IMG/VR virus record: IMGVR_UViG_3300033153_008530
Coordinates: 23,012-87,011 of that record
Origin: a virus
Strand: one strand, 5' to 3'
Length of the DNA: 64,000 nt
Made by a program: the position numbers and the translations under genes. Of the stretch, positions 13,646 through 36,800 are shown one piece after another (the first letter of the stretch is position 1; each line of letters begins with the position of its first letter). A model generated the notes under the pieces. It ran no database searches and was not told the origin of the DNA. It saw only the letters and a program-made list of their open reading frames with translations.

Positions 13646-13648
13646 TAG

Positions 13649-13782: not shown

Positions 13783-16700
13783 TTATCTAAAACGTTGTCT
13801 TATTGCATTATGATTTTTAACAGCATTTGCAGGATCAATACTTGAACCTGTTATACCAAATAGTTTAAAGAAGTGATTCCAAGCTTTTGCAGAACCTTGT
13901 TTCTGCCATGAATATGGGCCAACATCTTGTTGATAGAATCTTCTATCATCTCCTGTAAGACTCTGATAAAAGTCAACTACGAGTTTGCCATAACCATCAA
14001 GAGTAGGGCCAAATACCACTGAAGTAACATTCTTTAATTGTAATAAATCTCCAAGACCATACCCTGGTAGTGGAATAAATTGTTCATTCTCTGCACGTAT
14101 ATTCATTAACAACCATAATCCATGATTGGCCATCCAGCCAGTCCATTGAAAGTCTTCATCTTTACCTTGTTTTGTTCTTAACTTCTTATATTTCTCCTCA
14201 TCGTCTGGATCCCATCCATATAGTAATGCCATTAATAATACAAGTGAACTCAACATAGCAACTTCAACTCCTGTTTTCATTAATGCCTGTTTTTCTTCAG
14301 GTGTAGCATACATCATTTCTTTCCCTCCTGACTTAAGTCCTCTTCCTAACCACTTCATTGACCTTACATAATAACCCATTGATGATTCTCCAAGGCCAAT
14401 ATTATATCTTTCCTGTGGATCCTTCCAACTTCCTTTATATGACCATCTATTTACCATCATTGGTACAAAATATCTTCTTAAGAAACTTACCATTCTAAAA
14501 GCTAAGTATCTCTGAGCTTCAGGTTGATCAAATTTTGAGTATGCTCCTTGTAGATTATTGTTCACCATATGAATTCTATTTTTCATTTGATGAAATTTAG
14601 TACCACCTAGATCCCATGACTTATCTTCTACGTCATCTCTTAATTTAATTTGTTGATCAACTGTCTCATACGCATGTAATAATGATATTTCAGTACCATC
14701 TTTAAGTTTTACTTTCTGATGTTCCATCATCCCTGCAAATGTTTGGAGTGTTGCTTCAATCTCCATCCACTTTCTTGGTGAGTACATCCATGATGTTCCA
14801 ATGGCATCCATTAAAAACCCTCTAGAAGATGAATCTCCTAGTTTAGACTCAGTTCTTCCTTGGACAGCATCATACTCATCCATTAACTGTAATTTATGTG
14901 TTTTTGGACCACGTTTATAAATTTGTGCACTCATTTCTATTGCTGTTGCAGCTGACCATACTCTCCCTTTTGCATATGAGATTGGTGTCATGTATCTGCC
15001 TGCTGTTGTTTCAATAGTTGCTTGAAACATGGCCCCATATCTGTTCTTTAATGCTGACGGTATGTTTAATGCAAAGAAAGCAAACGAGGCACGTCCCATA
15101 ATTGCATTTACTGTCTTATGTAATGTATTATTATCTTTTCCCAATCCTGTCAATGTCTGACCTTCAAATTCCCTTTCATAGAAACCATTCACCATCATTG
15201 CTCTAACATTCTTATCCTTCTTATTACGATATGTAAACATACCTTTATTGAGAAAGTTTTGTTTCTGAATCTCTTTTATCTGATTTGCAGGATCATGTAG
15301 GGTATCTCTTAATGCTGCTGCAACTGGGTTGATCTCAGTTTTCTTAGATTGCTCATTTAAACTCTGATTATATATTATAAGTGCTTTTACTACATCTAAT
15401 GAAACCTGATCTAAAGGTATATCATATATACCTTTTACAGGTATATTTACAGTCTTATCAAATAAACCAGCATTTGTTAAATTATCTGTCTCATCATAGT
15501 TTAAATCATTATAATGATCATATTCTGTCTCAACGAAAAAATCCTTTATTCCCTGCCATATGGTTTTAACTTTACTATATGCTTTTTTACCAGTTCCTTT
15601 GGCTTTTAAATATTCAAAGTTTGACATTGGGAGACGTGGTACATCCAAATATAATCTACTTTCTTCTTCTGAATCACTTTGAAAGTCTAATGAGGCTTTT
15701 ACTAACTTTTCAATTAATTTAAAACGCTCTGGATCTTCACGTTTAATTCTAAAATAATCTTCATTTCTAAAGATATCAGGTACACCTGGGGCTAGATCTT
15801 TCCCTTCTTTTGGTAACCATCTTCCCCTATTGTCAACGGTCTCTCCAACTATTTTTGGAGTTTTTAATTGAATAGTTTCTCCTGTTTCCTCATCCACATA
15901 TGAATCCTTTACTTTTCTATCAAAATACTCAAAGGTTGGGACACCTACAATTGGATCTCCTATTTGCTTACCTTCTTTATCTCTTATTATTGTTGTTTCA
16001 TAATACTCTTCATCATTTGGTCTTACAACTGTCCATGCATAAACAATGTCATATCTTTTAACATGAGATTCACTAGCTTTATCATAAACCTTTTTATCAA
16101 TATGATTCTTATCAAACCAGTCTTTAAATTTATCATCTTGAGATAGCATTTTAAGAACTAAACTTCTATTATTTAAAAATGCAGCAACGTTTGCTTTGGT
16201 TACTTCATTTGTTTTGAGTTTTAGGATCATATCTGTTGTATCAACCTTACTTAAGTAGTTATTTATTATATCTAAATAATATTCAGTTGGCTCTTTATGT
16301 TGAAGTTCATTTAATTCACCAAACAAAGAGAATAACTCAGATCTTTCAAATTTATTGAGACCAATTTTTACTTTCTCACCTGTTATAGGATCTATAGACA
16401 TTCCCTCATCCATAATTTTTCTAAGAACAGACCATCTATCTATTTCAGATTGAGTAGGTTGTATATCATTTTTGAGTTTATATTGTATTTCGTCAAACTC
16501 TTCTTTTTCCTGTAGTGTTAATCCGCTATATCCGGCAACTCTTTCTTTTGCCTCAATTAATTCTTCTTGTAATGCTTTAATATGTGCTATGAGTTTATCA
16601 GCCATATCTGTTCCTTCAGGTTGACCATCAACATCTTTATATGGCCCAATTGAGTCAAAGATTTGAGTATATATATCTGAAAGGTCAAGTTTTTCCTGAG

Positions 16701-19700: not shown

Positions 19701-22700
19701 GAAGCAGATTTGCTAATTCAAATCCAGAAAAATACATTGGCATATCTTTTCCAAATCTATTTATATGTCTTTGTATAGCTTCATTAACTAAAGGTCTAAA
19801 ATAATTTTCTTCTACAGTAAGTGCTTGAGATAACTGATTTAAATCTGTAGTTTTAACTTTTTCTATAGCTTTATCTCTCTCAACTTCAGCCTTTTGCATC
19901 TCTTCTAATAAAATATAGTCAAGCTCCTGTTTTTTCTTATCACTTATTTTAGTTCTTTTATTAATGATTACATTCTTTAAGGCAGCTGATAAAAAGATTT
20001 GTGCGTTATACTCAATGTTTGATGCATACTTAACAAACATATCTAGTGTCATATGCTTTTTTACATCATTTATTAATTTATGTTTTTTATTGGTTTGTTC
20101 ACTATATATTAGTTGTTGTTTAGCAAAATTTAACTCTTTATATACATGATCTTGATTTCTAATATTTGAAAATCTATTTATAATATTAATATTTGTTCCT
20201 AATTCATCAACTCTTGGTTTTTTTACTACATTTACTTCATAAAAGGGTCTGAATCTTGAATTTCTTTCTTTAAAATATGCGAAATGTTCAGCAAGAAAGT
20301 CATTTATCTTTGCATAAACTGATCCCTCAGTCACACCTTGAGGCGTGTTACCAAGTGCTAGTTGAACCCTATTTTTCCTATCATTCATCCCTACTATCCC
20401 AATATTATTAACCTCTTCAATTATCCTGATAACTTCATCACTTACTTCTTGAGGCATAATATTAAGAATACCACCTTTTCCACGTATTGATAAACTTGTA
20501 GGTTTATTTATGTAATCAAAAATATGTTTTTGAGTATATAATTCATCTACTTTTTTTCTTCTTCTTTTTATTTCTTTATTTACGTCTTCTATATTACCTA
20601 TATATTGAAGATCTTCTTCTAATATTTCTTTAAAGCGGTCAAATAGGTTTTTTTGAGCCTCTTTTGAAACTGTTTTTATTGATCTCTCTATCTGTAAATT
20701 TTTTACTGCTTCATCTATATTTGAAGGATCTATTTGTGAGATACTTATAGTCTTATTATAATAGTTCCTTATACCAATAGCGTGGCCTGCAGCAGATACT
20801 AAATAATTTAAACCTGTACTTATTGCTGGCCCATGCTGGGCAAAAAGCATGTCCCAATCAAAGCTAATACTCTCACTATTTAAGCTATCTAGCTTCTTTT
20901 TCCATCTTCTATTTAAATTAAATAAATGATCATCAAATTCTTCCTCAATTTTTTGATTTATATCTACATCATCATCTACTTTACTTTTAACTAATTCTCT
21001 TATATGTTCTATATGATCATTCTGTATTTCATGAAGAATTACAGCATCTTTTTGAGAAGATGAAGGGTCTGAATAAAAATATGTTAAAGTTGCAAAGGCT
21101 GAAGGAGAACCAAAATCATGCATATAAAAATGTCCTCCACGTTGCATGGCTTCTTTATTAAATATTATTGATATTTTTTCATGTAAAACTTGATCAACAT
21201 GAACAGGAGTACTTTCTTTTAATGTAGTTAATACTCCTGGATCTATCACATCCTGAGCATTAAGAGCTGTAATTAGAAACTGTCGTTCTTCATATGGTAA
21301 ATTTCTTATTTGATCTTCTGTAAGATTATTATAATGATCCATTTGTTCAACGGTTAAAGAGACATCAGCCTGTCTTCCCCCTGAATCTAATCTTGTAAAT
21401 GTGTTATTTACACCATAAGAAAGATGATCATTTTCATTCATAAAGGATAATAAATAATGAGCCTGCATGAATGCTTCTAATTCTTTAATTAATTCAATAC
21501 CTTTTATTGATTTTAATTTTGGATTTTCCTTTTTTATAAGATTAAGAATATCCTGATAAATACCTTTATCAAATTTTGGAAAACCTTCTAATTTAAGAGA
21601 CTGATTAAGTGGAATGGATCTATCCCCATATTTTTCAATAAATTCAGAAACACTTCTTAATGAGGGTACTTTCTCTATATATTTTTTAGAAGTCTCTAAC
21701 CTCTTTACTAGAGTTGGATCAACTTTCTTTTTTAAATCTTTACTTGCATCAAAAGATAATCTAAAGTGTTTTCTAATGTTAGGAGCTGCCAAAGTGGATT
21801 TAATTATTTTATTTATTGTTTTTGGAAGATACCTTGTTCTCTTTTTAAATTGATTATTAAGTTTCTTTATAATAGCAGATGATTCAATAACTAAATCATT
21901 ATTTTCTTTTTCTACAACAGCCTGGTATGACAACATACTTTCATGGAGAGATCCATACATTTTGTGATACTCATCAAAAGTCATTAGATCTGTTAAATCT
22001 GATGTAAGTATTCTATATGCTGCATGATCCCATAGATTATTATCTTCATCTTTTAATTCAGCCGTTAAAGATCTCCATGAACTAAATAAATCCTTAAACC
22101 ATTTAATAAATGCTTTTAAGAAACTATAGTCTTCAGGTGTTGCAGCTTTTTTGTTTTGTACTCTCTCTATGGCATCAGCAATTAACTGACCTATTGATTC
22201 TTCTGTAAGTGTATCTAGTAATTCTGAGGACACGTTAGAAGGGTCAATCACTGGTGTATCGCCTGAATACACATCCTTATATGATACATCTTTTAGTAAT
22301 TCTTGTAATTTATCAGATCTTTTTGCAGCCTCCCAGAGTTCTTTCTTTAATCCAGAATCTTCTTTTAACAATCTATAAAAAAAATGCGCTGCTTCTTCAG
22401 GGACCTTATCCCATGCTTTCTTTCTTTTTGTAATCTCATCTACAATGTCAACAGAACCATTCATAAAGTTGGCCACAGCTAATGCAGATTTTACTACATC
22501 CCCTCTCTCAGATAATATTCTGGGAACTAAGTTTATGTCAACTCCAAGTTTTTCTAAGAACTGTTGAACAACGTCTATTGTACCAGAATAAAATCTCCAG
22601 TTATCTTTATATTCATTTTTTAGGATACCAAACAAACTAGTTTGATCTGTAGTCTCTACTATCTTATCTAATTCACTGTTAGTTAATGCAGGTTTAGTAT

Positions 22701-23043
22701 CTTCAAAATCTTCAACAATATGTAAATATAGCTTTTCAGTTAAGTCTTTTCCAATATAACTTGTGAATATAGGGTCATTAAATAGCTTATCATTAGCCGC
22801 CTCTATTATAATTCTAGATGGCGTATTAGGTGTAAAAGCGTCTCTAGATTCTTCATCCACATATTGATCTAAAAGTAATGCAGCCTCATTAAAATTATTC
22901 TCTAAAAAATTCTGATATAATGAAATTTTAGGTTCTACTATCTCATTGTTTCTTCCCCAGCTCTTCCAAGCTCCATCATCTTTTAGAATCTCAACTGACT
23001 TTTTCCATTCTCGTGTGTTTGTATTTGGACATGTTGCTCCCAT
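13783..23043 (-). CDS. Giant crAss-like virion protein with zincin-like domain
   Basis: 3,086 residues. Near the N-terminus, CPNTNTREWKKSVE (from residue 5) is a short motif seen at the head of large crAss-like proteins. VILHEIQNDH (residues 668-677) resembles the E-I-Q-S-D signature of phage polyvalent-protein domains. A zincin signature HEFAH is at 1396-1400 with candidate third ligand Glu1447/1448, followed by an amphipathic helix (KQLLRKVFG). Long helical, coiled-coil-like stretches cover about 1500-2400. Near the C-terminus a hydrophobic segment (AMLSSLVLLMALLYGW, about 2925-2940) could cross a membrane. It is the last gene of the late unit, just after the RNA polymerase, and is probably a co-packaged cargo protein. 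No enzymatic role is proven. Confidence 0.8.
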   Translation of the reverse strand: MGATCPNTNTREWKKSVEILKDDGAWKSWGRNNEIVEPKISLYQNFLENNFNEAALLLDQYVDEESRDAFTPNTPSRIIIEAANDKLFNDPIFTSYIGKDLTEKLYLHIVEDFEDTKPALTNSELDKIVETTDQTSLFGILKNEYKDNWRFYSGTIDVVQQFLEKLGVDINLVPRILSERGDVVKSALAVANFMNGSVDIVDEITKRKKAWDKVPEEAAHFFYRLLKEDSGLKKELWEAAKRSDKLQELLKDVSYKDVYSGDTPVIDPSNVSSELLDTLTEESIGQLIADAIERVQNKKAATPEDYSFLKAFIKWFKDLFSSWRSLTAELKDEDNNLWDHAAYRILTSDLTDLMTFDEYHKMYGSLHESMLSYQAVVEKENNDLVIESSAIIKKLNNQFKKRTRYLPKTINKIIKSTLAAPNIRKHFRLSFDASKDLKKKVDPTLVKRLETSKKYIEKVPSLRSVSEFIEKYGDRSIPLNQSLKLEGFPKFDKGIYQDILNLIKKENPKLKSIKGIELIKELEAFMQAHYLLSFMNENDHLSYGVNNTFTRLDSGGRQADVSLTVEQMDHYNNLTEDQIRNLPYEERQFLITALNAQDVIDPGVLTTLKESTPVHVDQVLHEKISIIFNKEAMQRGGHFYMHDFGSPSAFATLTYFYSDPSSSQKDAVILHEIQNDHIEHIRELVKSKVDDDVDINQKIEEEFDDHLFNLNRRWKKKLDSLNSESISFDWDMLFAQHGPAISTGLNYLVSAAGHAIGIRNYYNKTISISQIDPSNIDEAVKNLQIERSIKTVSKEAQKNLFDRFKEILEEDLQYIGNIEDVNKEIKRRRKKVDELYTQKHIFDYINKPTSLSIRGKGGILNIMPQEVSDEVIRIIEEVNNIGIVGMNDRKNRVQLALGNTPQGVTEGSVYAKINDFLAEHFAYFKERNSRFRPFYEVNVVKKPRVDELGTNINIINRFSNIRNQDHVYKELNFAKQQLIYSEQTNKKHKLINDVKKHMTLDMFVKYASNIEYNAQIFLSAALKNVIINKRTKISDKKKQELDYILLEEMQKAEVERDKAIEKVKTTDLNQLSQALTVEENYFRPLVNEAIQRHINRFGKDMPMYFSGFELANLLQSSKQTALIYAGPEEVAQFVAFESFEFGAEKYTAFLEDGKQPVYRENGEKISKKDYTKKYNQVKQEKVDNIIRQIFDKLYDEDPVTFDMMEINFPRTIEDIKKALNIYKYKDNSKMVKYVKALFAETNNQPLTTGALYNTLSSMPGIKLKYVHKISGIKNDAGGYLVDLSNYNYKNPLMYGLEESTTEETVVEAILEEKDPEVAPIEMDVESQKKLKAKEILYKLANHLSINLGIPFNVITSEQAVDLLKNTIYPYEGQNAFFFDGKVFLVGDNASLQDVLHEFAHPLVRSIGAQNPRLFNKIYEDLVKTKEGKEIIENLKEEYDETYKYFKEEAIVRALAEKSKVNTEDLKAPSAFQKVINKIVFALKQLLRKVFGKVKIENLSENTTLSELADMLVSEQFQIDTEIITDKDVAAYASNLNKFSDSLANLKNSDLLQITNAYYDTVSRQIKEVLNNKNYEAMKEILATEEGRGYLSGIQKSLRNYQTMENLSAENLEKEMMKLSEDVDYVRQHQESLVTNMLQTRDMLVKINDHLDEISRDPNNKDNLQKAFYYKEIIKYWDQFDKDLTSIIEQLNKEGKSINRRSPFFDIIKDIRTEITHAQETIKGIYLYGLQDALMEQLEPMLENIKIRYEELKKHAEEVRPEGKARDKYLKKLKADFDKLNLTKPQMLKTLKGELGDAHWANSFFEGFMYNADPVISSLAVFVKNAISDIIVKTNKETNGFLKIMEADIKAANVSMNPRAIGEKTTFVDILLKRVETEEGEVTWEEREIYTFLNPFIGNRKAYQEHLNAIQQAKNDAVETGNKTGIIDASNKFRKFLRDYYWRPFTQVYYDRQQVFDTPAGQKAWTGRQQILEALSNLDRIAGNETQKIENLDDKKALLRQLRQLSSLTDLNGNRKIAGAKDAHNDLDVAMILKQYNEDSRKFFEYTESPNLWQRKYEDYRTELEGFGLNEDEIKVKLEEWVTNNTRVQVKKEFYDTRADISARLSELISKLPEETQEKLDLSDIYTQIFDSIGPYKDVDGQPEGTDMADKLIAHIKALQEELIEAKERVAGYSGLTLQEKEEFDEIQYKLKNDIQPTQSEIDRWSVLRKIMDEGMSIDPITGEKVKIGLNKFERSELFSLFGELNELQHKEPTEYYLDIINNYLSKVDTTDMILKLKTNEVTKANVAAFLNNRSLVLKMLSQDDKFKDWFDKNHIDKKVYDKASESHVKRYDIVYAWTVVRPNDEEYYETTIIRDKEGKQIGDPIVGVPTFEYFDRKVKDSYVDEETGETIQLKTPKIVGETVDNRGRWLPKEGKDLAPGVPDIFRNEDYFRIKREDPERFKLIEKLVKASLDFQSDSEEESRLYLDVPRLPMSNFEYLKAKGTGKKAYSKVKTIWQGIKDFFVETEYDHYNDLNYDETDNLTNAGLFDKTVNIPVKGIYDIPLDQVSLDVVKALIIYNQSLNEQSKKTEINPVAAALRDTLHDPANQIKEIQKQNFLNKGMFTYRNKKDKNVRAMMVNGFYEREFEGQTLTGLGKDNNTLHKTVNAIMGRASFAFFALNIPSALKNRYGAMFQATIETTAGRYMTPISYAKGRVWSAATAIEMSAQIYKRGPKTHKLQLMDEYDAVQGRTESKLGDSSSRGFLMDAIGTSWMYSPRKWMEIEATLQTFAGMMEHQKVKLKDGTEISLLHAYETVDQQIKLRDDVEDKSWDLGGTKFHQMKNRIHMVNNNLQGAYSKFDQPEAQRYLAFRMVSFLRRYFVPMMVNRWSYKGSWKDPQERYNIGLGESSMGYYVRSMKWLGRGLKSGGKEMMYATPEEKQALMKTGVEVAMLSSLVLLMALLYGWDPDDEEKYKKLRTKQGKDEDFQWTGWMANHGLWLLMNIRAENEQFIPLPGYGLGDLLQLKNVTSVVFGPTLDGYGKLVVDFYQSLTGDDRRFYQQDVGPYSWQKQGSAKAWNHFFKLFGITGSSIDPANAVKNHNAIRQRFR

Positions 23044-23044
23044 A

Positions 23045-26000
23045 TTATGCTAAACATTTGTTTTTTAATTCTTGAATTTCATAATCACTAATAGGTTGAT
23101 CTTTTTGGATTATGGCTCTTATACTGGTAGATCTTAATGATCCAGGATTAATATAACCAAATTTATCATAAAGTTTACTAGATAAGTGAACATATGTTTT
23201 TCTTGATTTTACATTATCTAACAATTCTTTACCATATCCAGTTTTAATTAAGGCAATAGAATTGTTTCCCTTCATTAAATTAGCTATCTTATCAATAGCA
23301 TTATCAATTAAGATCTTGTTTTCTTCTAATGTTTCATCAGTCATCATCTTTCCATCGTTTATTAATGGGATACCAAGACTGTTATCAAACTCACTTAATG
23401 ATTCATCTCTTCCTTTTTTTCCTCTCTCATTATATATAAAGGTTACTCCACCACTCTGAGTTGCTAAAACTTCATATTTACTTGATGATGTTTGTGCATC
23501 ATATATATAAACATCTTTAGTTTTATACTTTTTTAAGGGTATTCCTTCTTTAACTGGTACTTTCTGCTCAGATGTCATGGTACTTGCCAAAGTTTTATCA
23601 ATCATATAATTTTTAGAGCGCATGTTTAATGATTTAGTTATTGCCCTATTCATTGTTATCATTCTATTTGTATAAAGTGTAAGAATCTCTTCATTTAGAT
23701 TCTTAATATATGATTCATAAGGACCTTTAAGAAGTAATAATATATTACGTTGATCAATAATCCTAGTCATTGAGAGTGGGCTCTTTGTATTTAACCCGGA
23801 TTGTAAGAAGGCGTAGTAGTTAAATCTCTGAAAGAAGTTAGTTATTTTTAATTTATCCTCTGGATCATCTATTTTTATTTCACTTGGATTACTAAGTTCT
23901 AGTAGATTCTCATGATAAACCTCTACTGTATCTGGGTCTAAAACAGTTTCTTTCAGTTTCAAGTTCTTTATTCTTTCACCAGGCTTTGCTTTTGATTGGA
24001 TAATACTTTCCATTAATGGATAATCTCTTGATAATGAGGGATATTTAGCTTTAATATCCATAAACTGATTAACCATACTATTATGTCCATAGAACATATT
24101 TCTAATATTAAGAGTATTGTCAAGAGCTTTGTCACGTAGTATCTCTTCGTAAGTGAGTAATTTCATTCTCTTCTCATACATGTTATCAGTTTCTCCTTCT
24201 TGTCTTTCTGTTTCAATAGAATCAACTTGATTCATGTTTCTCTTAAGTTTTTCTTTAAATTCTTCTTTTTTACTTTCTTCTTTAAAAGAAATAATACTTC
24301 TTAAGTATTCTCTTTCATATATAAATTTGTAAAATTCTTTTTCACTTAAAACATCTCTTGTTTTAAAAGCATCTGGAGTGAGAAGAGCATGTCCTGATAA
24401 CACCCATTCTTTCTTTACACCTTTTCCTTCTTTGTTAATCTTCTGCACCCATCTAACTCTTTTATTTTGGTCTGCATATGTTTTGTTCTTAAACATATCA
24501 TTAAGAGCTTCTTTGTTAACATATAATACATTATCTTTTACATAAGCGCCTACAGTTAATACATCTACTTCTTCAACTCCAATCTTATCATTAACTGTTA
24601 GACTTCTATATTCTTTTGTATTCTTATTAAAACCTTTTATTGAATTTTGGAATATAAAGCTTACAAGATCATTTTTCCATGCAGCAACAAACTTCTCTTG
24701 TTCATTCTGACCATAGGTTGTTCTTACTGCACCTTTTCCAGCGGCTGTATCCAAAAAGTCATATAAGAATTTATTAACTAATTCATGATTACGAAGTGGG
24801 AAATATTTACTCCATACCTCTTCTTGAAAGTCAGGTACTGAGGCAAATGAAGATATTGGACTTTCTGTAAGCAATCTATCTAAAGGTCCTCTTGGAAACA
24901 ATCCATATTTGTTAATTGTTCTCATGTTTCTTCTTCTCTCCTGAACATTATATAAAGAGGCTGCGGGATCTGTATCTAAATTTGTATTAAGTTTTACATC
25001 ACGTACAGAACCAGCTATTAATTCTAACTCAATAAAGTGTAAGAATGCATCTCGTGCTGTATCATTAACAGTTCCATTTAATGCAATCTCTTTAAGTTTA
25101 GCAGGATTAAAGTTTGATGTACGTCTCTGAGCTGTAAGAAGTATGTTTGGTACACTAGGTGTATTCGTTGCATCTAACCCTAATGTGGAATAATTATCAA
25201 ATCCATTACGTGCAATTACATTTACCTTTGCTTGATATCTAGTATACTGAGTTTCATCAGGGGCCATTCCTAGAGGCATTGAAAATGAGCTACTCATAAT
25301 TCTCTGTTCCTTTACGTACTCTTTTATAAGAGGATTAGAAAGGAACATAACTGCGTCAGTCAATGATACACCTGATTCAACTAATAATAATAATATAGGT
25401 GTTAACTCAGTATTACCCTGAAGATGAAAAATCCAAGGATCTTTTTCAACATCAACCCAACCATTTATTAATTGTTCTAGTATTTGAGCTATTTCAACAC
25501 CGTCTACATTATTTATATTAGATAAAGATATTACGTCATTCTTACCAACTTTAAAAGTATTATGATCTAATAAGATTCTTGTATTAAACTCACTCTTGTC
25601 TCTCATAAAAGTTGGCATTAAATACATACCTACTCTATTAAATAATGCATTATAAGTATTTGCAATTGCTCCTTGTCCTAATGTCTTTTTACCAACGTTA
25701 AAGGCCTCATGAATATCTGTATTAAATCCTATTTCTAATATTTTTGTATGACTAATGTTTTCTGCTTCTTCACCACGTATCTGATCTACAACATCCATTG
25801 CAAGATGATTTGAGTTTGGACGAACAAGACTTATAAAGTTATGTGGTAATTCAAGAATTTCTTTCATCTTATACATTATCTCATTCTCCACTCCTCTAAC
25901 ACCTTCAGTAGATAAAATTACTTCACCTTCTTTATTTCTTCTAATATTAGGCATCATTATAGTTAACTTGTCTATGTCAAAATCAGAACCTGATTTAGAA

Positions 26001-29000
26001 ACAATTTCTGATGGTGGAATAATTATGTTACCTGCGGATTCTGGTAAAAACTCATATACTTCCATGAACTCTGCGGAGTTAAGACCCTGAACTGGAATAC
26101 GCACACCCACCATGGTGATTAGTTTCCTATTATCATCTCTATTTAACCACTGTTCATCTTTGATCATTTCATTAAGCCTAAGTCTTGTTTTTATTCTTTC
26201 ACCATCATTATGTGTTAATCCTAATAATTTAATAAAACCACCTTGTAAAGCTATTTTAACTTTCATAGCAGATATGGTCTTACGTATATTACCTTCTGCG
26301 TCAAACATTGAGTATGTAGGTAGATCACTTGATCCCCACTTTGCAATTTCTGCATCTGTAGGATTAGTGAAATTTCTATCAGCGGGGGTGGCCTCATTGT
26401 TTGTAAATAGAGCAGTTGATATCTGAACTAACATTTGTCCATTAACTTTTTGTCTAACAAGCTGTTTATTAACTACTGCAAAAAGAATATTCTCAATACT
26501 CTCTGCATTAACTGACATTCCAAATGGAAATACTAAGTCTCCTTTATCATCAACTTCTAATACATCAAGTTCAGATGCTGTTATATCTTTTCTTTCAAGA
26601 TTTGGTATGATAACTTTATTTAGAAGATCCTGAAGATTTCCTTCTAATTTACCTTTTTCATTATATGACCATCCTGCATCTTTAAGTAATTGATCTTTCT
26701 TATACTTCATTAACTTATCTAATAACTCCTCGTATTCTTTATATTTAGAAAAGTAATCAGATTCATCCTTCATTACTTGTAAACCCTTTTTCTCAATCTT
26801 CTTCCATTCAACACGTCTCTTTGTAAGGCTTGTACCGGGCATAAAGTCAATTGGTACGCCACCTTCAACTAAACCAGTTTCAATTAGTTTTCTAAGCTGA
26901 GTAGAGAATGTTACTTTAGTTTTATGCTTTGAATCAATATCTAATTGATCTTTTAGAAATTCCAAAAACATAACATTAGGTGTATATTGATCTGCAGATT
27001 CAACAGACTTAAAGATCCTTTTTATGGGGTCTGCATAAACTTCATCATAAGTTCCATCTTTTGTAATAGTACTTATTTTTGAACCTGATTCAAATAATGC
27101 ATAATCAAATTTTTGATCAACTAAACTATCATGAAGATCTTGTAATCTAGTATTCTCTATAACGTTTGGTATAAGAGGCATTAAAGAGAACTTATGACCA
27201 GCTATAACTGGTAAACCATCTGTTTTTAAGGGCCCAAAATATTGTACTTTCTTTGGTGGAAAAAATTCTGTTACAAGTCTTGGATCAACATACTCACCAG
27301 CAACAATTTTTTTATAAAGTTGTTCTTGTGTATTACTCCATTTTCCTATTGCAAACTGATATATCCTATATGCATCAAATGTAATCCAACCTTGACCATC
27401 ACCTTCGTTCATTTCTTTGTAAGGTTTTATAGCATGGTAAACCGCATTCTCTAATTTTTTACCTTTTAATTCTGCTACAGTGCTATAATAATCTCTAAAC
27501 GCTTTTTCATATTCTTTAACATATACTGAAGATACTATATGATCCTGAAATACTGCTGACTTAAATGTACCATCAAAGTCTTTATCTTTTATCCCTCTTT
27601 TTATACTGTAATCACCCTTCATATTATTTCTAATATAATTGATAATTGCCTGATCAGTTCTAGGGAAACGTCCTGTTGATGCAACCATTTTGTTTCTCTT
27701 AAAGAACTCCATTCCATTCTTATATTGGGCAGGATCTCCATAAAAGAAAATTAACGTTTCAAAATCACGTATCCATTTATTATAAACAAAAGACTCAAAT
27801 ATTGCTTCTCTTATTTGTGGAGTTGTTGCACTGTGATTCTGATAAGATATTTGTTTTATCAATGAATCAGATATATAGTTAAGATCTCTATATCTTTCAG
27901 TAACATCTTTTACTTGACTATTAAAATACTTAGTTATTTCATCATGTAATCTATTATATAAATCCTGATTAGTTTTTAATTCCTCAAGTAGTTCAACATT
28001 AAGATCTTTTAGTTCTTTCTTTAAAGGATTTGAAAGAATCTTGTCAAATATTGAAAACTCTTTAGCTCTTTTATTATAACCAGGTACATTTTTTACTTGA
28101 TCTGCTTTATTAATTCTAGTTAATTCAGCTTGTATATAAGGAATAATTATTTCTACTGCCTTATCTTCCCCAGTATTTGTAAAGAAATCTTTAGTGTCAA
28201 CATATAAATGCTTATCACTTCCTAATGTGTGAGCTTCAGATATACCTGCAGAATAAGCGCTCCCAGCAGAAGCATGTCTTAATAACTCAGGAGATCCTGA
28301 GACTGGTGTACCACTTAACAGTGTATAATGAAGATCTGTGATTAGTTTTGTATGCTTGTCTGCCTCTACAGTAGTTGAGCTATATCCAATATCTGTAATA
28401 AGATTATCTACTACCATCTGGTTTCCAGATAGATTATTTAAATCTAGTGTAACACCTTTTCTTTTAATACCACCATTTTCAAAATCAAATAAAGAATTTA
28501 ACCATTGTGATGTGCTTTTATTTTGCCCGTTTTCATCCTGATAAATATACGTCCATGGATTACGTTTTGATGAAAGATAAGACATAAAAGGTTTATTAAT
28601 TAACTCATTAAAGGACTTTGAGTCATTAATTTCATTGATAATCACACTTAGCGAACTTTGAAGTGAATATTCATATTGGATATCACCTAATGCATTTGTA
28701 ACAGCTGCAGAAGAATATTTATCTGAGTATTTTAACTGTAATAAAGCTAACTCTTTAAGATTCCCTTTATGACCTTTATGTACAACTCTCCCTTTTTCAA
28801 TTATATCATATTCTAAAGCTTCAATAATATTTCTTACTTTAGTACCTTTTTCATTAAAATATTTTAATCTTTTTACTATTTCCTCAACAAACACTCTGTA
28901 TCTACTCTTACTATTAATATTTTGTTTTAATTTTATATTTCTTGTATCAAGATCAATTCCAATATCTCTTAAGAATACAAACGGATTACCTGATGGAGAT

Positions 29001-32000
29001 GCAAATTTTTTCATGACAGAATTTATGTCAAGATAATTTCCTTCTGTATCTGGTTTTATGTGTGGAGACTCTTTTGTTGTTGCAAAAGAATTCATCCAAT
29101 CAAATCTTATTCTTCTCCAATTTGCAGAGGCATTCCCAATTTTATCCGTGTATGACCATGCATTTTCTGTATCTCCAAATGCACCTTCCCTTGTTAAAAG
29201 TGTTCTATCCATTGTGTATTGGACCAATGGAATTCTTGTTCTGTTAAACGCTTCAACAAATTTATTCCATAACATGGCATCATAGTATGTCTCATGACCA
29301 GGAGTTTCATCACCTTTTTCATTTATAACAACAGGTTTACCAAGGCGCTCTATAAGTTGTTTATAAACTGGAAAGTCTTGAGAATCCTCTTCTAATAGAT
29401 CATATATTTTATTTGAGTCTCTTACTCCCTGTAATAGAGATAATGTATGTTCCCAAGTTACTTTAAAGTTTGAAAGCTTTTTTACACCAAGTTTGTTATA
29501 CACACCGTCAGGATCTTGTGGTGTCACTTCAAAGAGAGTCCTTAAAAGATAAAGCACCTCATTTGAAGCTAAATCTTTTACTGAAAGTTCATTACCTTTT
29601 CTGTCATGACCTTTAATTTTGTTAGATGTCTCCTCTTCAGAAAATTCTGTAATGAATTTATCCTCAAGATTTAAGATTTCAGTTCGTTTTTGATGAAAGG
29701 CAATAACACCTTTAGTTTGTTTTTTAGTTATGAATGATTCAAAGTCACCAAAATTATCAATTGCAAATGTCAATAGATCTATACTATTCTTTGTTACTAT
29801 ATCCTGTGGCTTCTTTTCTTCTTTTGTTCTAAGTTCATTTAGTCTTTCTATGACATATTCATATGCAGTATTTAATCCTGTCTTACTTGATAATAATTTG
29901 CTTATAGCTGCACGTCCTTTCCCGCTTACAATAAACTCTCTATTAGCTTTATCTATAAGTTCTCCAATTAATGAATCAACTGTTTCACTGATTAAAATAG
30001 AATCAGTAAAAGATATTTGTTCGTCATTAAGTCCTTTTATACCACCCTTATCAAGCTTTGCAAACATCATATTATTTAGAGATGGCGTATAATCATTTAT
30101 GTCACCAATATATAATTTGTCATAAAGATCTTTAACTCCTTCAACACTTTGTTGATCAATAACAACTTGGTCAAGAGTTGAATTTCCAAATAGTTGTTTT
30201 AGAAAGTCTAATATCTTTTGGAAAATAGTCTTGGCAGCTGGCGTATTTATTTTACGCTTGCCGTCTGAAAGTACATATAACCTAAAATCTTCAGCTAAAT
30301 ATTCTTCTAACATATAATCAGAAGCCTTTTTAAAACTGATTTTATCACCTAAATAATTTGTAAATGTTCCACTTCTCTTCTTTAAACTATCATATAGATC
30401 TCTTTTTTGTTCAACTGTAAGATACATTTGACTAAATCCGTGCCATGCCTCATGATAGAGATCTGTATAATTAGAACCTTTGTATAATATTATTCCGTTT
30501 TTAGTAAATTCTGCAAAGTTTTTGGAATTGACTATATTGAACGCAGCCTGGTATGGAAGATTTTCTCGCATTGGATGGTTGTTATACCACTCTTCAGCAT
30601 CTCTTATTTGTTTTTTAGTAGCTGCATTATTAATATTTTTGTTTTTATCTAACTTAAGAAATCTATTAAGTGCACTGTCCCTGTTATTGTCAGTGGGATT
30701 TTTCGTGACTGCATTGTAATCTTTAAGAATATTTTGAGTTAACTCATCTTCTAATTCTTGTTCTTCTAATTTAATTACTACAGCGGAGCTCTTTTTAATA
30801 TTTGGGATTTCTCTTCTCTTTATGAAATCATCTGCATTATCTTTATTACCAAATCTACCTTCAATTCTTTTATTACTTGAGGGAACCTGGATTACATAAT
30901 CAGCATGCTCAATAAAATTATACGTACCAGTCAAAATAACTTTACCTTCTTCTTTTAGATCTTTTATTTGCCCTAAGACATCATCTTGTACAAGCTTGTA
31001 ACTTACACCGCTATCTTTTTTCCAATATTCTAAAATAAAATTCTTATCCTTTTTCACTTTAAAATCAGGATCTCTTCTTTTTATTTCAGCTTTTAGTAGT
31101 TCATCCGCATCAATAACACCTTCCATTGTTGGGACAAAAGTAGTCTTACCTGCTCCAGGAGTTGCATAGATTAATTTACCCGTGTATTTTGATTTAGATT
31201 TTTTACCAGCTTTTGGAGTTGAAATAGAAGGATAAGTTGCTGTGTTCTCTAATACTTCACCAGGTTTATATTCAGTGTATATATCATATATGGATTTCTT
31301 TTTTAATGGTATAGTTAAAGAACCATCAGAAGATTTTGGAGATTCAGCTGTTGAATATTCTCTCTTACCAATCCCCTTATTTCTTATTAATTTAGTTGTA
31401 ACTGGAAATATTTTAAGTGTATCTAATACTATTCCTGTACGTTGTCTGAATAACTCAGCGTAGGCATTTAGTTGAATCTCGTCTTGAGCTTGATAATTAT
31501 ATTGTTTGGTTTTATAGGCAATACGTCTATTAAGACCAGATGTTTTAAGATCTACAAGATGAAAGGTTTTATTCTTTTCATGATATAATAACATGTCAAT
31601 TGTACCAGCATAATTAACATTTCCAAGTGTCCCCCATAGGGTTGGTATCTCAGTATATATTCTATAATTCTTCTTAAGTCTTTTCTTTGCCTCAGCATAT
31701 ACATCATAGAGTTCACCTAAAAACACATCTGAAAATACCTCAGTATTTTTTCTTTCAGGGTGTTCAACATACATTTTTTTAAAAGCCTTATATGATGTTA
31801 TCTGATCAGATAATGTAGCTCTAAATAAATCATCAGCAATTGTACCTCTTGTACGTGCTTGTCCTTCATCTCTAGGAGCATCAGCTGGATACGGAATAAG
31901 ATCTCCTTTAAAGGCGCTTACTCTTCTAAATGATTCTCTAGCTTCATCTATATAAAATTCAGAATCTTTTTTATTTACAGTTAATTTCTTTTCTGAAAGT

Positions 32001-33799
32001 GGTTTAAGTGCTTCAGTTGGATTATCTACTTTGCTTATGATCAGATCATCTGGAGTGCTCTCAATTATATTCTTTTTCTTTCTTCCAATTTGTTCTAACG
32101 CCTTATTGGACAAAGCATATGTAAAATATGCATTTAACTTAACAATCTTCTTTTCTTTATTTATAGCTGTTTTAGCTTCAAAATTATCTGTAATCCATAG
32201 ATTATACTCCATTTCTGTTAGAGTAACAATATTATCCTCAACACTAAAGCTATTAAACCTCTGATTGATAAACTTTTTATTTATGTTCAGTCTTGAGGCA
32301 GATGTATTGTTTTTTCTTTCTTCTTGAAGATATTGTATAATCTTATCTCTTACTGCTTCAGGATTATCTGATTTACTTATATTTTCCTTTTTAAACTTAA
32401 ATATAATTGATTTACCTACCTGATCTCTTCTAAAATATATACCATCATACTTTGGGAAATATATAGAGGATAATAGTTCAAATCTCTGTTGAGGTCTTAA
32501 TTCTTCTAAAGTTCCTCTTTTGGTTTTAATGTTAAGAGGCATTGTCATCATACTTGCCAAGTTAAAGATCTGATCATCAATCATCTTTGGTCTGTCAACA
32601 TATATAGGATCAGTACTATTTTCTTCATAGTCAAAATATGTGAAACCTTTATTTTTTCCAAAAGAATTATCAAGTGCTGGATATGGAAGGAAACCAAACT
32701 CTCCAAAATCTATTTCAGAAAGTTTTGTGTTTCTTTCATATGATACAGGACGATATCCTAAACTGCTACTTTCTAATATTGATGCAGTTACAGTTTCTCC
32801 ATTACTTACAGATCTTTGTATTGCTACAATATCTTCTAAACCTTGATATTGAAGTTTCTTAACATGATCAGTTTGCTTTTTAGTTGGTGTATCACCATAC
32901 ATTTTTCTTGCAACCTCATTAACTTGCTGAATATCTGATCTCTCCAAAAATAATTTACCATCACTTTTTCTTATAGGCGTTCTCATTTTAATAGGAATGA
33001 CATAACCATTTTCTTCATTGGTTATTTTTAACTCATCATTAAAATATATAGGATGTCCTTCACTATCAGTAATTATCCATACAACACCTTTTTTTGTTTT
33101 TTCAGGATTTTTTGTAATATACTGTTGTTCACCTTGGGTCCAATTTTTAAGAGGAACATCAGCTGCTAAAACTGCAGTTATATAATAACCCATCTTATCC
33201 CCCGTGTCATCACTACTAATTCTTATTTTACTTATAATATCTCTTATAACAGCATATCTACGTTTTGAAGCTGGATCTTTACTTGGTATATTAGTAAATT
33301 TTCCTTTTTCTGTTTCAGGAGCTTCATTACCTGTTGTTGTATTTGAAGATATTGGTCTTGCTTCAAAATTTCCTTCAATGTCCAGCTCTTCATTGGTAAG
33401 ATCTTTTCTCTCCTCTGGATCAAGCATATTTAATATTCTCAATCTTGTTACAATAATCTCAAGTTCTTTAATATCTACTTCAGGATATACATACTTAAAT
33501 ACATTATCAAGATTTTCAAATGACTCTGTCATCTCAACTAACTCACTGTACTTATTACCAACGTATTTACCTATGGTATTATCATTTGCTGCCAGCTTCT
33601 TTACAAAATCTGGAACCAATTGAACATATGCAAGAACTTTTGCCTTTTCTTTTTTAAGGTCATTAGATGCAATGTTCTCTATATGATTAATGATGTCATT
33701 AAGGTTATATTCAACCTCCTCATTCATCATATTTTTAAGTTTTCTTGCAGTAATAGACAATATTGCTTCTATATGTTTATCTGGTAATCTACATTTCAT
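23045..33799 (-). CDS. Giant virion RNA polymerase fused to nuclease, P-loop and zincin domains
   Basis: 3,584 residues. The active-site loop DFDID at 2606-2610 follows a strand-rich region (RIPVQGLNSAEFMEVYEF) laid out like the double-psi beta-barrel of RNA polymerases before NADFDGD. This is the hallmark of crAss-like virion RNA polymerases, single-chain enzymes carried in the capsid to transcribe early genes. Three more domains precede it: PD-(D/E)XK nuclease (GTIDML with Asp735, VDLKTSG with Asp750 and Lys752), P-loop NTPase (ATPGAGKTT, Lys885) and zincin (HEAWH 1116-1120, Glu1165/1166). The phi14:2 enzyme is about 2,180 residues, so this is an enlarged fusion. The next gene starts one base beyond its stop. 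RNA polymerase call near certain; the exact N-terminal activities are inferred. Confidence 0.92.
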   Translation of the reverse strand: MKCRLPDKHIEAILSITARKLKNMMNEEVEYNLNDIINHIENIASNDLKKEKAKVLAYVQLVPDFVKKLAANDNTIGKYVGNKYSELVEMTESFENLDNVFKYVYPEVDIKELEIIVTRLRILNMLDPEERKDLTNEELDIEGNFEARPISSNTTTGNEAPETEKGKFTNIPSKDPASKRRYAVIRDIISKIRISSDDTGDKMGYYITAVLAADVPLKNWTQGEQQYITKNPEKTKKGVVWIITDSEGHPIYFNDELKITNEENGYVIPIKMRTPIRKSDGKLFLERSDIQQVNEVARKMYGDTPTKKQTDHVKKLQYQGLEDIVAIQRSVSNGETVTASILESSSLGYRPVSYERNTKLSEIDFGEFGFLPYPALDNSFGKNKGFTYFDYEENSTDPIYVDRPKMIDDQIFNLASMMTMPLNIKTKRGTLEELRPQQRFELLSSIYFPKYDGIYFRRDQVGKSIIFKFKKENISKSDNPEAVRDKIIQYLQEERKNNTSASRLNINKKFINQRFNSFSVEDNIVTLTEMEYNLWITDNFEAKTAINKEKKIVKLNAYFTYALSNKALEQIGRKKKNIIESTPDDLIISKVDNPTEALKPLSEKKLTVNKKDSEFYIDEARESFRRVSAFKGDLIPYPADAPRDEGQARTRGTIADDLFRATLSDQITSYKAFKKMYVEHPERKNTEVFSDVFLGELYDVYAEAKKRLKKNYRIYTEIPTLWGTLGNVNYAGTIDMLLYHEKNKTFHLVDLKTSGLNRRIAYKTKQYNYQAQDEIQLNAYAELFRQRTGIVLDTLKIFPVTTKLIRNKGIGKREYSTAESPKSSDGSLTIPLKKKSIYDIYTEYKPGEVLENTATYPSISTPKAGKKSKSKYTGKLIYATPGAGKTTFVPTMEGVIDADELLKAEIKRRDPDFKVKKDKNFILEYWKKDSGVSYKLVQDDVLGQIKDLKEEGKVILTGTYNFIEHADYVIQVPSSNKRIEGRFGNKDNADDFIKRREIPNIKKSSAVVIKLEEQELEDELTQNILKDYNAVTKNPTDNNRDSALNRFLKLDKNKNINNAATKKQIRDAEEWYNNHPMRENLPYQAAFNIVNSKNFAEFTKNGIILYKGSNYTDLYHEAWHGFSQMYLTVEQKRDLYDSLKKRSGTFTNYLGDKISFKKASDYMLEEYLAEDFRLYVLSDGKRKINTPAAKTIFQKILDFLKQLFGNSTLDQVVIDQQSVEGVKDLYDKLYIGDINDYTPSLNNMMFAKLDKGGIKGLNDEQISFTDSILISETVDSLIGELIDKANREFIVSGKGRAAISKLLSSKTGLNTAYEYVIERLNELRTKEEKKPQDIVTKNSIDLLTFAIDNFGDFESFITKKQTKGVIAFHQKRTEILNLEDKFITEFSEEETSNKIKGHDRKGNELSVKDLASNEVLYLLRTLFEVTPQDPDGVYNKLGVKKLSNFKVTWEHTLSLLQGVRDSNKIYDLLEEDSQDFPVYKQLIERLGKPVVINEKGDETPGHETYYDAMLWNKFVEAFNRTRIPLVQYTMDRTLLTREGAFGDTENAWSYTDKIGNASANWRRIRFDWMNSFATTKESPHIKPDTEGNYLDINSVMKKFASPSGNPFVFLRDIGIDLDTRNIKLKQNINSKSRYRVFVEEIVKRLKYFNEKGTKVRNIIEALEYDIIEKGRVVHKGHKGNLKELALLQLKYSDKYSSAAVTNALGDIQYEYSLQSSLSVIINEINDSKSFNELINKPFMSYLSSKRNPWTYIYQDENGQNKSTSQWLNSLFDFENGGIKRKGVTLDLNNLSGNQMVVDNLITDIGYSSTTVEADKHTKLITDLHYTLLSGTPVSGSPELLRHASAGSAYSAGISEAHTLGSDKHLYVDTKDFFTNTGEDKAVEIIIPYIQAELTRINKADQVKNVPGYNKRAKEFSIFDKILSNPLKKELKDLNVELLEELKTNQDLYNRLHDEITKYFNSQVKDVTERYRDLNYISDSLIKQISYQNHSATTPQIREAIFESFVYNKWIRDFETLIFFYGDPAQYKNGMEFFKRNKMVASTGRFPRTDQAIINYIRNNMKGDYSIKRGIKDKDFDGTFKSAVFQDHIVSSVYVKEYEKAFRDYYSTVAELKGKKLENAVYHAIKPYKEMNEGDGQGWITFDAYRIYQFAIGKWSNTQEQLYKKIVAGEYVDPRLVTEFFPPKKVQYFGPLKTDGLPVIAGHKFSLMPLIPNVIENTRLQDLHDSLVDQKFDYALFESGSKISTITKDGTYDEVYADPIKRIFKSVESADQYTPNVMFLEFLKDQLDIDSKHKTKVTFSTQLRKLIETGLVEGGVPIDFMPGTSLTKRRVEWKKIEKKGLQVMKDESDYFSKYKEYEELLDKLMKYKKDQLLKDAGWSYNEKGKLEGNLQDLLNKVIIPNLERKDITASELDVLEVDDKGDLVFPFGMSVNAESIENILFAVVNKQLVRQKVNGQMLVQISTALFTNNEATPADRNFTNPTDAEIAKWGSSDLPTYSMFDAEGNIRKTISAMKVKIALQGGFIKLLGLTHNDGERIKTRLRLNEMIKDEQWLNRDDNRKLITMVGVRIPVQGLNSAEFMEVYEFLPESAGNIIIPPSEIVSKSGSDFDIDKLTIMMPNIRRNKEGEVILSTEGVRGVENEIMYKMKEILELPHNFISLVRPNSNHLAMDVVDQIRGEEAENISHTKILEIGFNTDIHEAFNVGKKTLGQGAIANTYNALFNRVGMYLMPTFMRDKSEFNTRILLDHNTFKVGKNDVISLSNINNVDGVEIAQILEQLINGWVDVEKDPWIFHLQGNTELTPILLLLVESGVSLTDAVMFLSNPLIKEYVKEQRIMSSSFSMPLGMAPDETQYTRYQAKVNVIARNGFDNYSTLGLDATNTPSVPNILLTAQRRTSNFNPAKLKEIALNGTVNDTARDAFLHFIELELIAGSVRDVKLNTNLDTDPAASLYNVQERRRNMRTINKYGLFPRGPLDRLLTESPISSFASVPDFQEEVWSKYFPLRNHELVNKFLYDFLDTAAGKGAVRTTYGQNEQEKFVAAWKNDLVSFIFQNSIKGFNKNTKEYRSLTVNDKIGVEEVDVLTVGAYVKDNVLYVNKEALNDMFKNKTYADQNKRVRWVQKINKEGKGVKKEWVLSGHALLTPDAFKTRDVLSEKEFYKFIYEREYLRSIISFKEESKKEEFKEKLKRNMNQVDSIETERQEGETDNMYEKRMKLLTYEEILRDKALDNTLNIRNMFYGHNSMVNQFMDIKAKYPSLSRDYPLMESIIQSKAKPGERIKNLKLKETVLDPDTVEVYHENLLELSNPSEIKIDDPEDKLKITNFFQRFNYYAFLQSGLNTKSPLSMTRIIDQRNILLLLKGPYESYIKNLNEEILTLYTNRMITMNRAITKSLNMRSKNYMIDKTLASTMTSEQKVPVKEGIPLKKYKTKDVYIYDAQTSSSKYEVLATQSGGVTFIYNERGKKGRDESLSEFDNSLGIPLINDGKMMTDETLEENKILIDNAIDKIANLMKGNNSIALIKTGYGKELLDNVKSRKTYVHLSSKLYDKFGYINPGSLRSTSIRAIIQKDQPISDYEIQELKNKCLA

Positions 33800-33813: not shown

Positions 33814-36800
33814 TTAAGTAGGTGAACAAGGGGGTTCATCTTCTAATGCACTAATATCCTCATCATCAGTTTTATCATCAGATAGTTTAATTATCTCTTT
33901 AACTTTATCACTATCATCACCTATATCTAAAGCAGCATCTTTAGTTTCATTTATACTTTCTGCATCTTCTCCTGTTATTACCTCTGTTATCTCTGGTTTA
34001 ACAAACTTAGTCCCTTCAACAACACCTCTTATTTGTTTATCAAATGTTTCTCTTTTTATTACTAATTCATTTCCCTTTTGATCTTGTGCAATAATTTGGT
34101 TTTTAGAAACTTTAACTACCATCACGGGACCTGATATATCTTTACCGGGATTTATTGGACTAAGAAGCATTTTTGCTTTTACATCATCAAAGCTGAATTT
34201 TATTAGTTCTTTCTTTATGTTATACATATCTGTAATTAAATCTGAATTAAGTGATCTACCATCTATTATTATACTACTTCTTAATTTTGAGTTAAGTGTT
34301 AAGAGTTTTTCAGCTGCCTTAGACCATTTCTCTAAATCTTTAAAAGTTTTAATATTTTTATATTGTGATGATAATACTCTATGTATTTGCATATTAATAT
34401 CAATATCTTCTGGATCAGCTTCTTTAATCTCTTTTTCAACTTCAACAATATCATATGCATGTAATTCTCCTTTTTTTAACCATGTTTTTATAGTTGTGTC
34501 TTCAGTATCTACAATAAGATCATCAACAACTATATCTCCTACTGGGATACGCCCATGATGTACTAATGTATATACTTTATCTCCAATTACTATATGACCT
34601 ATTTGGTTTTTTGTTTTTAAACCAATCTGTGTAGCTCTTGTTGCATTTACAACTAAAACCTTTCTTCCTTCTTTTTCTTGTATATTTTCAATTTCTTCAG
34701 GTGTTAGTATATCTGAACTTATACGTATACCTAATTTTTCTTTTTCAATATCTGTTAATCCTTCAAGTTCTTTTGCTGAAGGCATTCCTTCTTTTAATGC
34801 AATGAGCTCATTATTTCTACGATCACTTATCTTTTTTATAAGCGCTTTTTTGCTACTTGCTTCAAGTTGAACTTTTTCTCCATTACTCTTTTCATAAATT
34901 GTTGTAAAAACCTTACGTGATCTTTCATCATCTAAATCTTCTATGTCTTCACTGATATTATCTATAGCATCTTTAGCTCTTCTGGCTATATCATCTTTTT
35001 TAGATAATTTTTTAGATTTCTTTTTAACTTTTTTCTTATCTGTTTTAAGACTCTGATTATATTTTGCAATAATTACAGCGGCAGAATTTGTATTTTCTAT
35101 ATATTCCTTTAATCCAATTGGTTTTTCATCAATTGCTTCTTTTCTCTTATTATGCGTTTCTAAACCTTTTTTAAGTTGCTCTATTAAGGGAGCTGGCAAA
35201 TCTTCAATCTTTGTGTCAGGAGTAAAACCAAGATCAGGTCCATCATTGTCCTTTGGATCTTGTTTACCAGTGTTTGTCTGATCAATATACTCTGTTGTTA
35301 AAGCTATTGTTTGATCTAAAACTGTATTACCCGTTTTGATACCTAATGCTTTATTTAAGAATCTTGTAACAGCTTTAAGGAATTCTTGCCAAGCGGATGT
35401 TTTTGCATCATCCCATTTGATTTCTTTTAATAACTTTTGGAAGTTATCATTTGTCATTGCTTCAGCAACAAATTCTTCAATATCTTTTAACCCATAAGGA
35501 ACTATACCAATTTTACCAGTATTAGCTAAATAATAATCAACTGTTTTTTTCCATATTTCCTCTATTGCTGTTCTATATTCTGTATCTGTTCTTAATCCTT
35601 TAACAGTAAGTCTATGTATTATTTCATGAAGAATTGTATGCTCAATTGCGTTTTGTCCTGCTGTATAGTCAATAGAAGAATATCTTACATCTATATATAC
35701 GTCACCAGATTCTGTATCATAAACACCGGGTGTTGAAAGGTTATTTACAAACTTGATTGTATCAGTTGCGTTTGTTTTCATTAATAATGCAGCCGCTAAC
35801 TTTTTCTCTCGTGGTGTAGATAAAGACCCACTGTCTATAATTGACTGTAATACCACTCTTTGTAATACTGTACTTTCTGCAGAATCAGGATCAAAACCAA
35901 ATTGCTCTGCATAATCTTTATAAGTACGTTTATCATTTTTATATTTACTTCTTCCTCTTGGATCATATCTTGTATCAGCTCTTGCTTCAGGAATTGGCTT
36001 TCCAGTTACTTCACTCCATTTATTGACAATTTCTAATATTTTTACCCAATCTTCTGGATGAGTGTCTTGTGTTATTTCTTCAAGATCTGTTACTCTGTAA
36101 AAGGTAGCTGGTAATATCTTATCTGTTTTAAATGCTTGTGCATCATCTGGATCAAAAAAGTATCCTGCTTCATAAAGAGACTGAAACAAACCATTATCAT
36201 CTGATATATCTTCGTAAAGATTTAATAAGTGAGCTATATCTTCCTTTTTACGTTTGTATGTTTCCTTCATTATAGAAGCTTCTCTCCTAGCGCTATTGAT
36301 CATAGGGGCTCCTGATGGATCTAGTAGTATGTTAACTGAGTTTGTTAGATTTATACTCTCATTTTCTAATTTATAGTAATCTGCTAGTTTTTCAAATGAA
36401 GCTTCTATATCTTCATTAAATACATGACCACTATTTATTTTAGCTATAACTTCTAAATAATTTTTATATTTATCAAATAACTTTTCCTTTGAAGTCATTT
36501 GTTTTTTAACCTGATCAAAATCAAACTCCAATTGACCAGCTTCAACTTTAGCATTAGTAATTGATTCTTCTTCTAAATTGTTTTTATATTCCTCAATTGA
36601 ATCTTTTAACTCTTTTAAAGCATCTAATTTTAATTGTTTAGACTTTTTAACTGCTTTAAATGTTTGATCACCCTCTGAAAATTGTTCAACTTCTTTCTTT
36701 AAGAGCTCTATTTCTTTATAAATTGAACCAAGCGCAAGCTCTGTTGATTCATCTTTTGAATCAAATAAAAGATTAAAGTCATGGGCTTTAGCTTTAGATA

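What the first reader, a model, noticed from the sequence alone, without database searches (positions are those of the whole stretch)
23045..33799. Nuclease, P-loop NTPase, zincin and RNA polymerase in one 3,584-residue protein
Seen: PD-(D/E)XK residues Asp735/Asp750/Lys752, Walker A Lys885, HEAWH 1116-1120 and DFDID 2606-2610, in that order in one uninterrupted frame. Known: crAss-like phages carry a single-chain virion RNA polymerase with DFDID, about 2,180 residues in phi14:2. Inference: an injected machine that may cut, move or protect DNA, process itself and transcribe early genes. The added N-terminal 1,200 residues make this an unusual fusion.
Basis: partly seen in the sequence, partly recalled or inferred. 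Interest (0 to 1): 0.75.

Follow-up and report, generated by a model that had tools for sequence, protein, structure and literature searches.

The report
Viral RNA polymerase with inserted enzymes
A crAss-like phage encodes one giant protein, probably carried in the virus particle, that joins an RNA polymerase to a protease-like domain and has a nuclease and a kinase-like domain spliced into a linker; relatives fill that linker with other enzymes or leave it empty, which suggests an exchangeable payload site.

Summary
A single 3,584-residue reading frame on the minus strand carries PD-(D/E)XK residues, a Walker A lysine, HEAWH and DFDID at the stated positions. The DFDID part is a crAss-like phage virion RNA polymerase: a profile without phi14:2 matches PDB 6VR4 at E=4e-41. 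Zincin-RNA polymerase chains of 3,000-5,800 residues are normal in this viral group, and a PD-(D/E)XK domain in the transcription proteins has been published, so the size and most of the fusion are not new. What is new is a ~460-residue insert (about residues 576-1035) in a short linker that is nearly empty in colinear relatives. It folds as a RecB/RecE/Cas4-type nuclease plus an adenylate/shikimate-kinase-like P-loop domain. In some relatives the same pair sits at the C-terminal end of the preceding cargo protein. In others the linker holds a nuclease with SLOG/NADAR-like domains, or only the P-loop domain. The exact four-enzyme combination was seen only here among about 100 loci. Best reading: an injected, polyvalent-type virion RNA polymerase with an exchangeable payload slot. 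The zincin fold is supported by conserved residues only. All activities, virion location and self-processing are inferred.

The parts
23045..33799 (-). 3,584-aa polymerase-containing giant cargo protein (residue r starts at 33799-3(r-1))
32096..33799 (-). N-terminal domain NT, residues 1-568, conserved in the near clade, function unknown
30695..32074 (-). inserted cassette, residues about 576-1035, absent from colinear relatives L016-L019, L021, L025, L028
31274..31948 (-). PD-(D/E)XK nuclease domain, residues about 618-842 (D735, D750, K752, Q776)
30707..31183 (-). P-loop kinase-like domain, residues about 873-1031 (Walker A G882-x-G-K885-T886; D897/D899)
30188..30520 (-). putative zincin domain, residues 1094-1204 (HEAWH 1116-1120, E1166)
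25247..27844 (-). RNA polymerase core, residues 1986-2851
25970..25984 (-). DFDID catalytic loop, residues 2606-2610
23054..25111 (-). C-terminal region CT, residues 2897-3582, conserved in relatives
33814..39078 (-). preceding cargo protein, 1,754 aa; orthologous over residues 50-1027 to the L100/L101 protein that carries nuclease+P-loop at its C-terminal end; here a zincin-like domain lies at residues 1142-1243
13783..23043 (-). following giant protein, 3,086 aa; residues about 1290-3080 match the 1,700-2,300-aa ORF after the polymerase in relatives; HEFAH at 1396

Best explanation
[quoted passage not shown] The likely course is: the chain is packaged, ejected with the DNA, and its two-barrel RNA polymerase transcribes early genes. 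The zincin N-terminal to the polymerase may release domains or cut a host protein. A linker between the N-terminal domain and the zincin is a tolerant site that takes exchangeable enzyme cassettes. Here it holds a RecB/RecE/Cas4-type nuclease and a nucleoside-monophosphate/shikimate-kinase-like P-loop domain, which probably act at the earliest stage of infection on host DNA, nucleotides or defence. SHOWN by computation: polymerase homology, folds of nuclease and P-loop domains, conserved catalytic residues, position and variability of the insert. INFERRED: virion location, ejection, activity of each domain, processing, and the payload role.
For: Polymerase: tblastn to phi14:2 gp66 at E=8e-23; a profile without phi14:2 hits PDB 6VR4 at E=4e-41 with GSDFDIDK aligned. 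phi14:2 g065-g069 were found by MS/MS in virions (record annotation). Phage: crAss-like primase and a replication block converging on a giant cargo block. Zincin before the polymerase in one ORF in most relatives. Insert: NT and zincin-polymerase-CT are colinear with seven relatives whose linker is 92-106 aa against 534 here. Exchange: nuclease+P-loop at the C-terminal end of the preceding protein in L033/L100/L101/L038; nuclease+cpYpsA (E=2.8e-23)+weak NADAR in L024's linker; P-loop alone in L097's linker. Folds: model pLDDT 77; AddA Z 12.4, MGME1 Z 10.9, Dna2 Z 10.1; adenylate and shikimate kinases Z 9-9.7; RecE Foldseek E=1e-4.
Against: No experiment on this protein or phage. The zincin fold was not confirmed: model pLDDT 60, Foldseek found nothing, best zincin-like Z 4.1. 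No processing site could be tested. The P-loop lysine is lost in two relatives (L034, L038), so kinase activity may not be essential. Nuclease+SLOG/NADAR rests on three related loci, of which L022 and L024 are near copies.
Confidence: 0.72

Rival explanations
1. Polyprotein reading: the chain is only a fused precursor. The zincin cuts it into separate nuclease, kinase and polymerase proteins, and the order of modules in the chain has no functional meaning.
For: Module-to-ORF boundaries differ widely: the zincin is in another ORF in phi14:2, crAss002 and L044-L051, and the nuclease is in the previous or next ORF in many loci. Published work expects processing of polyvalent proteins by zincins (PMC5512222).
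Against: No cleavage site was identified; the N4 virion polymerase keeps its HExxH domain in a ~3,500-residue chain whose structure was solved (PMC12633501).
Confidence: 0.35
2. DNA-metabolism reading: the nuclease and the kinase-like domain form one salvage unit that degrades host DNA and phosphorylates the released nucleotides for phage synthesis.
For: The two domains travel together in L033/L100/L101/L038 and the window; their folds are RecB/RecE-like exonuclease and NMP/shikimate kinase.
Against: The P-loop lysine is lost in L034 and L038 while the nuclease residues remain; L096 and L097 have the P-loop domain without the nuclease, and L020/L022/L024 the nuclease without the P-loop domain.
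Confidence: 0.2
3. The insert protects or processes the entering phage DNA ends, or helps recombination, rather than attacking the host.
For: RecB/RecE/Cas4-type nucleases commonly act on DNA ends (general knowledge of the families; folds).
Against: The replication block already has its own ExoVIII-like nuclease, window 8245-9237.
Confidence: 0.2
4. Artefact: misassembly or chance motifs.
For: The record is a linear metagenomic contig and no other locus has all four modules in one chain.
Against: Uninterrupted frame, similar GC and third-position GC across all modules, conserved catalytic residues, independent three-of-four combinations in other contigs.
Confidence: 0.03

Closest known systems
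crAss-like phage virion RNA polymerase, phi14:2 gp66 (PDB 6VR4)
   Same: single-chain two-barrel polymerase, DFDID loop, same giant-protein gene block
   Different: gp66 is 2,180 aa and lacks the NT domain, insert and zincin in its chain
Suoliviridae giant polymerase proteins (cr4_1 gp26 4,491 aa, cr10_1, cr118_1, cr273_1 gp35 5,794 aa)
   Same: HExxH domain N-terminal to the polymerase in one chain
   Different: no nuclease or kinase-like domain detected before the zincin by the module profiles; some use TAG=Q
Environmental relatives L016-L041 (IMG/VR)
   Same: NT-zincin-polymerase-CT colinear, up to 44% identity
   Different: linker empty or filled with other sequence; exact nuclease+P-loop combination not seen in the chain
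Polyvalent proteins (Iyer et al. 2017) and N4 virion RNA polymerase
   Same: giant chain with polymerase, HExxH domain and other enzymes, predicted or shown to be ejected
   Different: N4 polymerase is T7-like, unrelated to two-barrel enzymes; its HExxH domain is C-terminal
PD-(D/E)XK domains in crAss-like transcription proteins (Yutin et al. 2021)
   Same: a nuclease domain in a large transcription-block protein already reported
   Different: that paper's main text gives no P-loop partner and no linker position; its supplement was not readable here

Membership tests
crAss-like phage RNA polymerase | DxDxD catalytic loop inside polymerase homology to phi14:2 gp66 | tested here: met
   E=4e-41 to 6VR4 by a profile without phi14:2; GSDFDIDK aligned
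crAss-like phage RNA polymerase | two double-psi beta barrels by structure | not tested
crAss-like phage RNA polymerase | present in the virion and active in early transcription | not testable with these tools
   needs proteomics and biochemistry
Crassvirales | crAss-like DnaG primase and convergent replication/transcription blocks | tested here: met
   tblastn hits mainly crAss-like phages; layout
Crassvirales | TerL, portal and major capsid protein of the order | tested here: inconclusive
   not found among the proteins scanned of an 87-kb linear record, which may be incomplete
PD-(D/E)XK, RecB/RecE/Cas4 type | fold and catalytic D, D/E, K plus conserved Q | tested here: met
   AddA Z 12.4, MGME1 Z 10.9, RecE E=1e-4; D/D/K/Q conserved
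P-loop kinase, adenylate/shikimate kinase type | Walker A in a P-loop kinase fold | tested here: met
   Z 9-9.7; Walker A intact here
P-loop kinase, adenylate/shikimate kinase type | phosphotransfer to a nucleotide or similar substrate | not testable with these tools
   no substrate evidence; two relatives lost the lysine
Zincin, gluzincin type | HExxH and downstream glutamate | tested here: met
   HExxH in 101/107 and E1166 in 107/107 rows
Zincin, gluzincin type | zincin fold | tested here: inconclusive
   pLDDT 60; Foldseek none; weak Z 4.1; weak Pfam E=0.059 and, in one relative, Tox-MPTase2 E=9e-4
Polyvalent proteins | several disparate enzymatic domains in one chain encoded with virion genes | tested here: met
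   four enzyme modules by sequence; ORF 59215-63999 in the same block matches a virion structural family
Polyvalent proteins | injected with the DNA | not testable with these tools
   inferred from virion detection of homologues in phi14:2 and crAss001

The most novel reading that the evidence does not exclude
The linker between the N-terminal domain and the zincin of this virion RNA polymerase is a dedicated payload bay. Different phages load it with different early-acting takeover or counter-defence enzymes (nuclease+P-loop kinase-like; nuclease+SLOG+NADAR-like; P-loop alone), which enter the cell with the polymerase and may be released by the neighbouring zincin.
Probability: 0.35. Interest if true: 0.7.

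Novelty: new variant of a known kind. Interest (0 to 1): 0.5.

Why it matters
If the linker is a payload site, the sequence of the polymerase protein alone shows which enzymes a crAss-like phage delivers at the moment of infection. It would also show how these abundant phages trade functions between their giant cargo proteins.

Tried and rejected
Megablast in named phages: no match. Single-protein scans of viral and genome contigs gave at most one distant locus; the short alignment around DFDID gave 80 loci. A long alignment had no stretch conserved enough to scan with. The ten-sequence profile against PDB was rejected as evidence because it contained phi14:2; it was replaced by a profile without it. 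The first mixed alignment misplaced P-loop rows on the zincin and was not used for modelling. The zincin fold search led nowhere. The P-loop domain found no named phage relative. Fusion of two neighbouring genes by loss of a stop codon was rejected: NT starts the polymerase ORF both here and in relatives, so the cassette lies inside the gene. Whether the nuclease was gained once or separately in the window and L020/L022/L024 was left open.

Full report
OBSERVATION. Window 23045-33799 encodes, on the minus strand, one uninterrupted 3,584-residue protein. The record is an 87,011-base viral contig, of which the window is bases 23012-87011. A plus-strand replication block (DnaB-like helicase, Sak4, primase, exonuclease VIII-like, DNA polymerase) converges on about 50 kb of giant minus-strand proteins. 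Its primase hits mainly crAss-like phages, so it is a crAss-like phage; terminase and capsid genes were not found among the proteins scanned.

POLYMERASE. tblastn finds phi14:2 gp66 and many crAss-like polymerases. A profile built without phi14:2 matches PDB 6VR4 at E=4e-41, with the GSDFDIDK block aligned; that block is invariant in nine polymerases apart from an I/V change. A scan with the block found at least 495 relatives in IMG/VR, of which 80 were kept.

WHAT IS ORDINARY. Profiles of each module show the HExxH domain N-terminal to the polymerase in the same chain in cr4_1, cr10_1, cr118_1, cr114_1, cr273_1, Dulem virus 42, cr108_1 and most environmental relatives. Of 63 environmental polymerase ORFs with an intact start, 51 have it. 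Chains reach 5,794 aa in cr273_1, and a review gives up to about 6,000 aa (PMC10136315). Yutin et al. 2021 reported PD-(D/E)XK domains in large transcription proteins (PMC7886860), and crAssphage gp45 is annotated as fused to a zincin. Iyer et al. 2017 describe N4 virion polymerases fused to zincins as polyvalent proteins (PMC5512222). Size and polymerase-zincin fusion are therefore not new.

WHAT IS UNUSUAL. Residues 1-570 and 1035-3584 align colinearly with L017, L018, L021, L025, L026 and L028. In seven relatives (L016-L019, L021, L025, L028) the gap between the N-terminal domain and the zincin is 92-106 residues; here it is 534. An alignment puts the insert between VKLNAYFTYALSNKALEQIG and NPTDNNRDSALNRFLKL, about residues 576-1035.

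THE INSERT. An alignment of 15 window and locus sequences gave a model of mean pLDDT 77. Its first half matches AddA (Z 12.4), AdnA, MGME1 (Z 10.9), Dna2, Cas4 and RecE; its second half matches archaeal adenylate kinases and shikimate kinases (Z 9-9.7). Catalytic D/D/K and a following Q are conserved in 40-44 of 45 nuclease domains; the Walker A lysine in 9 of 11 P-loop domains, being lost in L034 and L038. The P-loop family has no match in named phage records.

EXCHANGE BETWEEN SLOTS. In L033, L100, L101 and L038 the nuclease+P-loop pair lies at the C-terminal end of the preceding protein. The window's preceding protein (33814-39078) is orthologous to the L101 one over residues 50-1027, but carries a zincin-like domain at 1142-1243, while its nuclease+P-loop pair is in the polymerase protein. 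The polymerase linker itself holds nuclease + cpYpsA (E=2.8e-23) + a weak NADAR match in L024, nuclease plus unassigned sequence in L020, and the P-loop domain alone in L097. In the polymerase tree the window sits in a supported 15-row clade with both empty and filled linkers. Exactly four modules in one chain were seen only in the window.

ZINCIN. H1116, E1117 and H1120 are present in 106, 106 and 101 of 107 rows and E1166 in all. The fold itself was not confirmed: the model is weak (pLDDT 60), Foldseek found nothing, and the best zincin-like match, the protease core of a lethal factor structure, has Z 4.1 only.

MECHANISM. Best-supported: a packaged, ejected polymerase chain that also delivers other enzymes. 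Shown: polymerase homology, the two folds of the insert, residue conservation, insert borders and cassette variability. Inferred: virion location (from phi14:2 and crAss001 virion proteomics), ejection in a partly unfolded state (PMC10172136), activity of every domain, and zincin processing. Whether the nuclease acts on host DNA, phage DNA ends or defence cannot be decided from sequence.

LIMITS. Sampling is biased: the 80 loci were chosen by likeness to the window's DFDID block, and many are cut by contig ends, so absence of a module in the neighbouring ORF is not firm.

Noticed in passing
L024 residues about 590-1300 of ORF 1709-13948: The same linker holds PD-(D/E)XK, a circularly permuted YpsA (SLOG) domain (E=2.8e-23) and a weak NADAR match, a combination suggestive of NAD or ADP-ribose conflict.
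   Followed up: partly
L003 27538-32949 (cr4_1 gp27): The protein after the polymerase has a polyvalent-type ADP-ribosyltransferase domain (E=5.2e-9), a zincin-like domain and a PD-(D/E)XK domain.
   Followed up: no
L006 13329-24919 (cr108_1): The polymerase ORF breaks at the GSD of the DxDxD motif and continues in the next ORF after a gap, as published for other crAss-like phages.
   Followed up: no
window 39084-42428, 47045-50545, 50800-52962, 52904-59215: Four large neighbouring ORFs had no significant family match and no relative among the fetched loci.
   Followed up: no
window 13783-23043: The following 3,086-aa protein has about 1,290 N-terminal residues that most relatives lack at this place, and an HEFAH motif at 1396.
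   Followed up: no
L034 2-2677 and L038 1-3597: P-loop domains with a destroyed Walker A motif beside intact nuclease residues.
   Followed up: partly
L005 2672-13090: A distant 3,472-aa polymerase relative with DHDGD in place of DFDID, also behind an HExxH domain.
   Followed up: no
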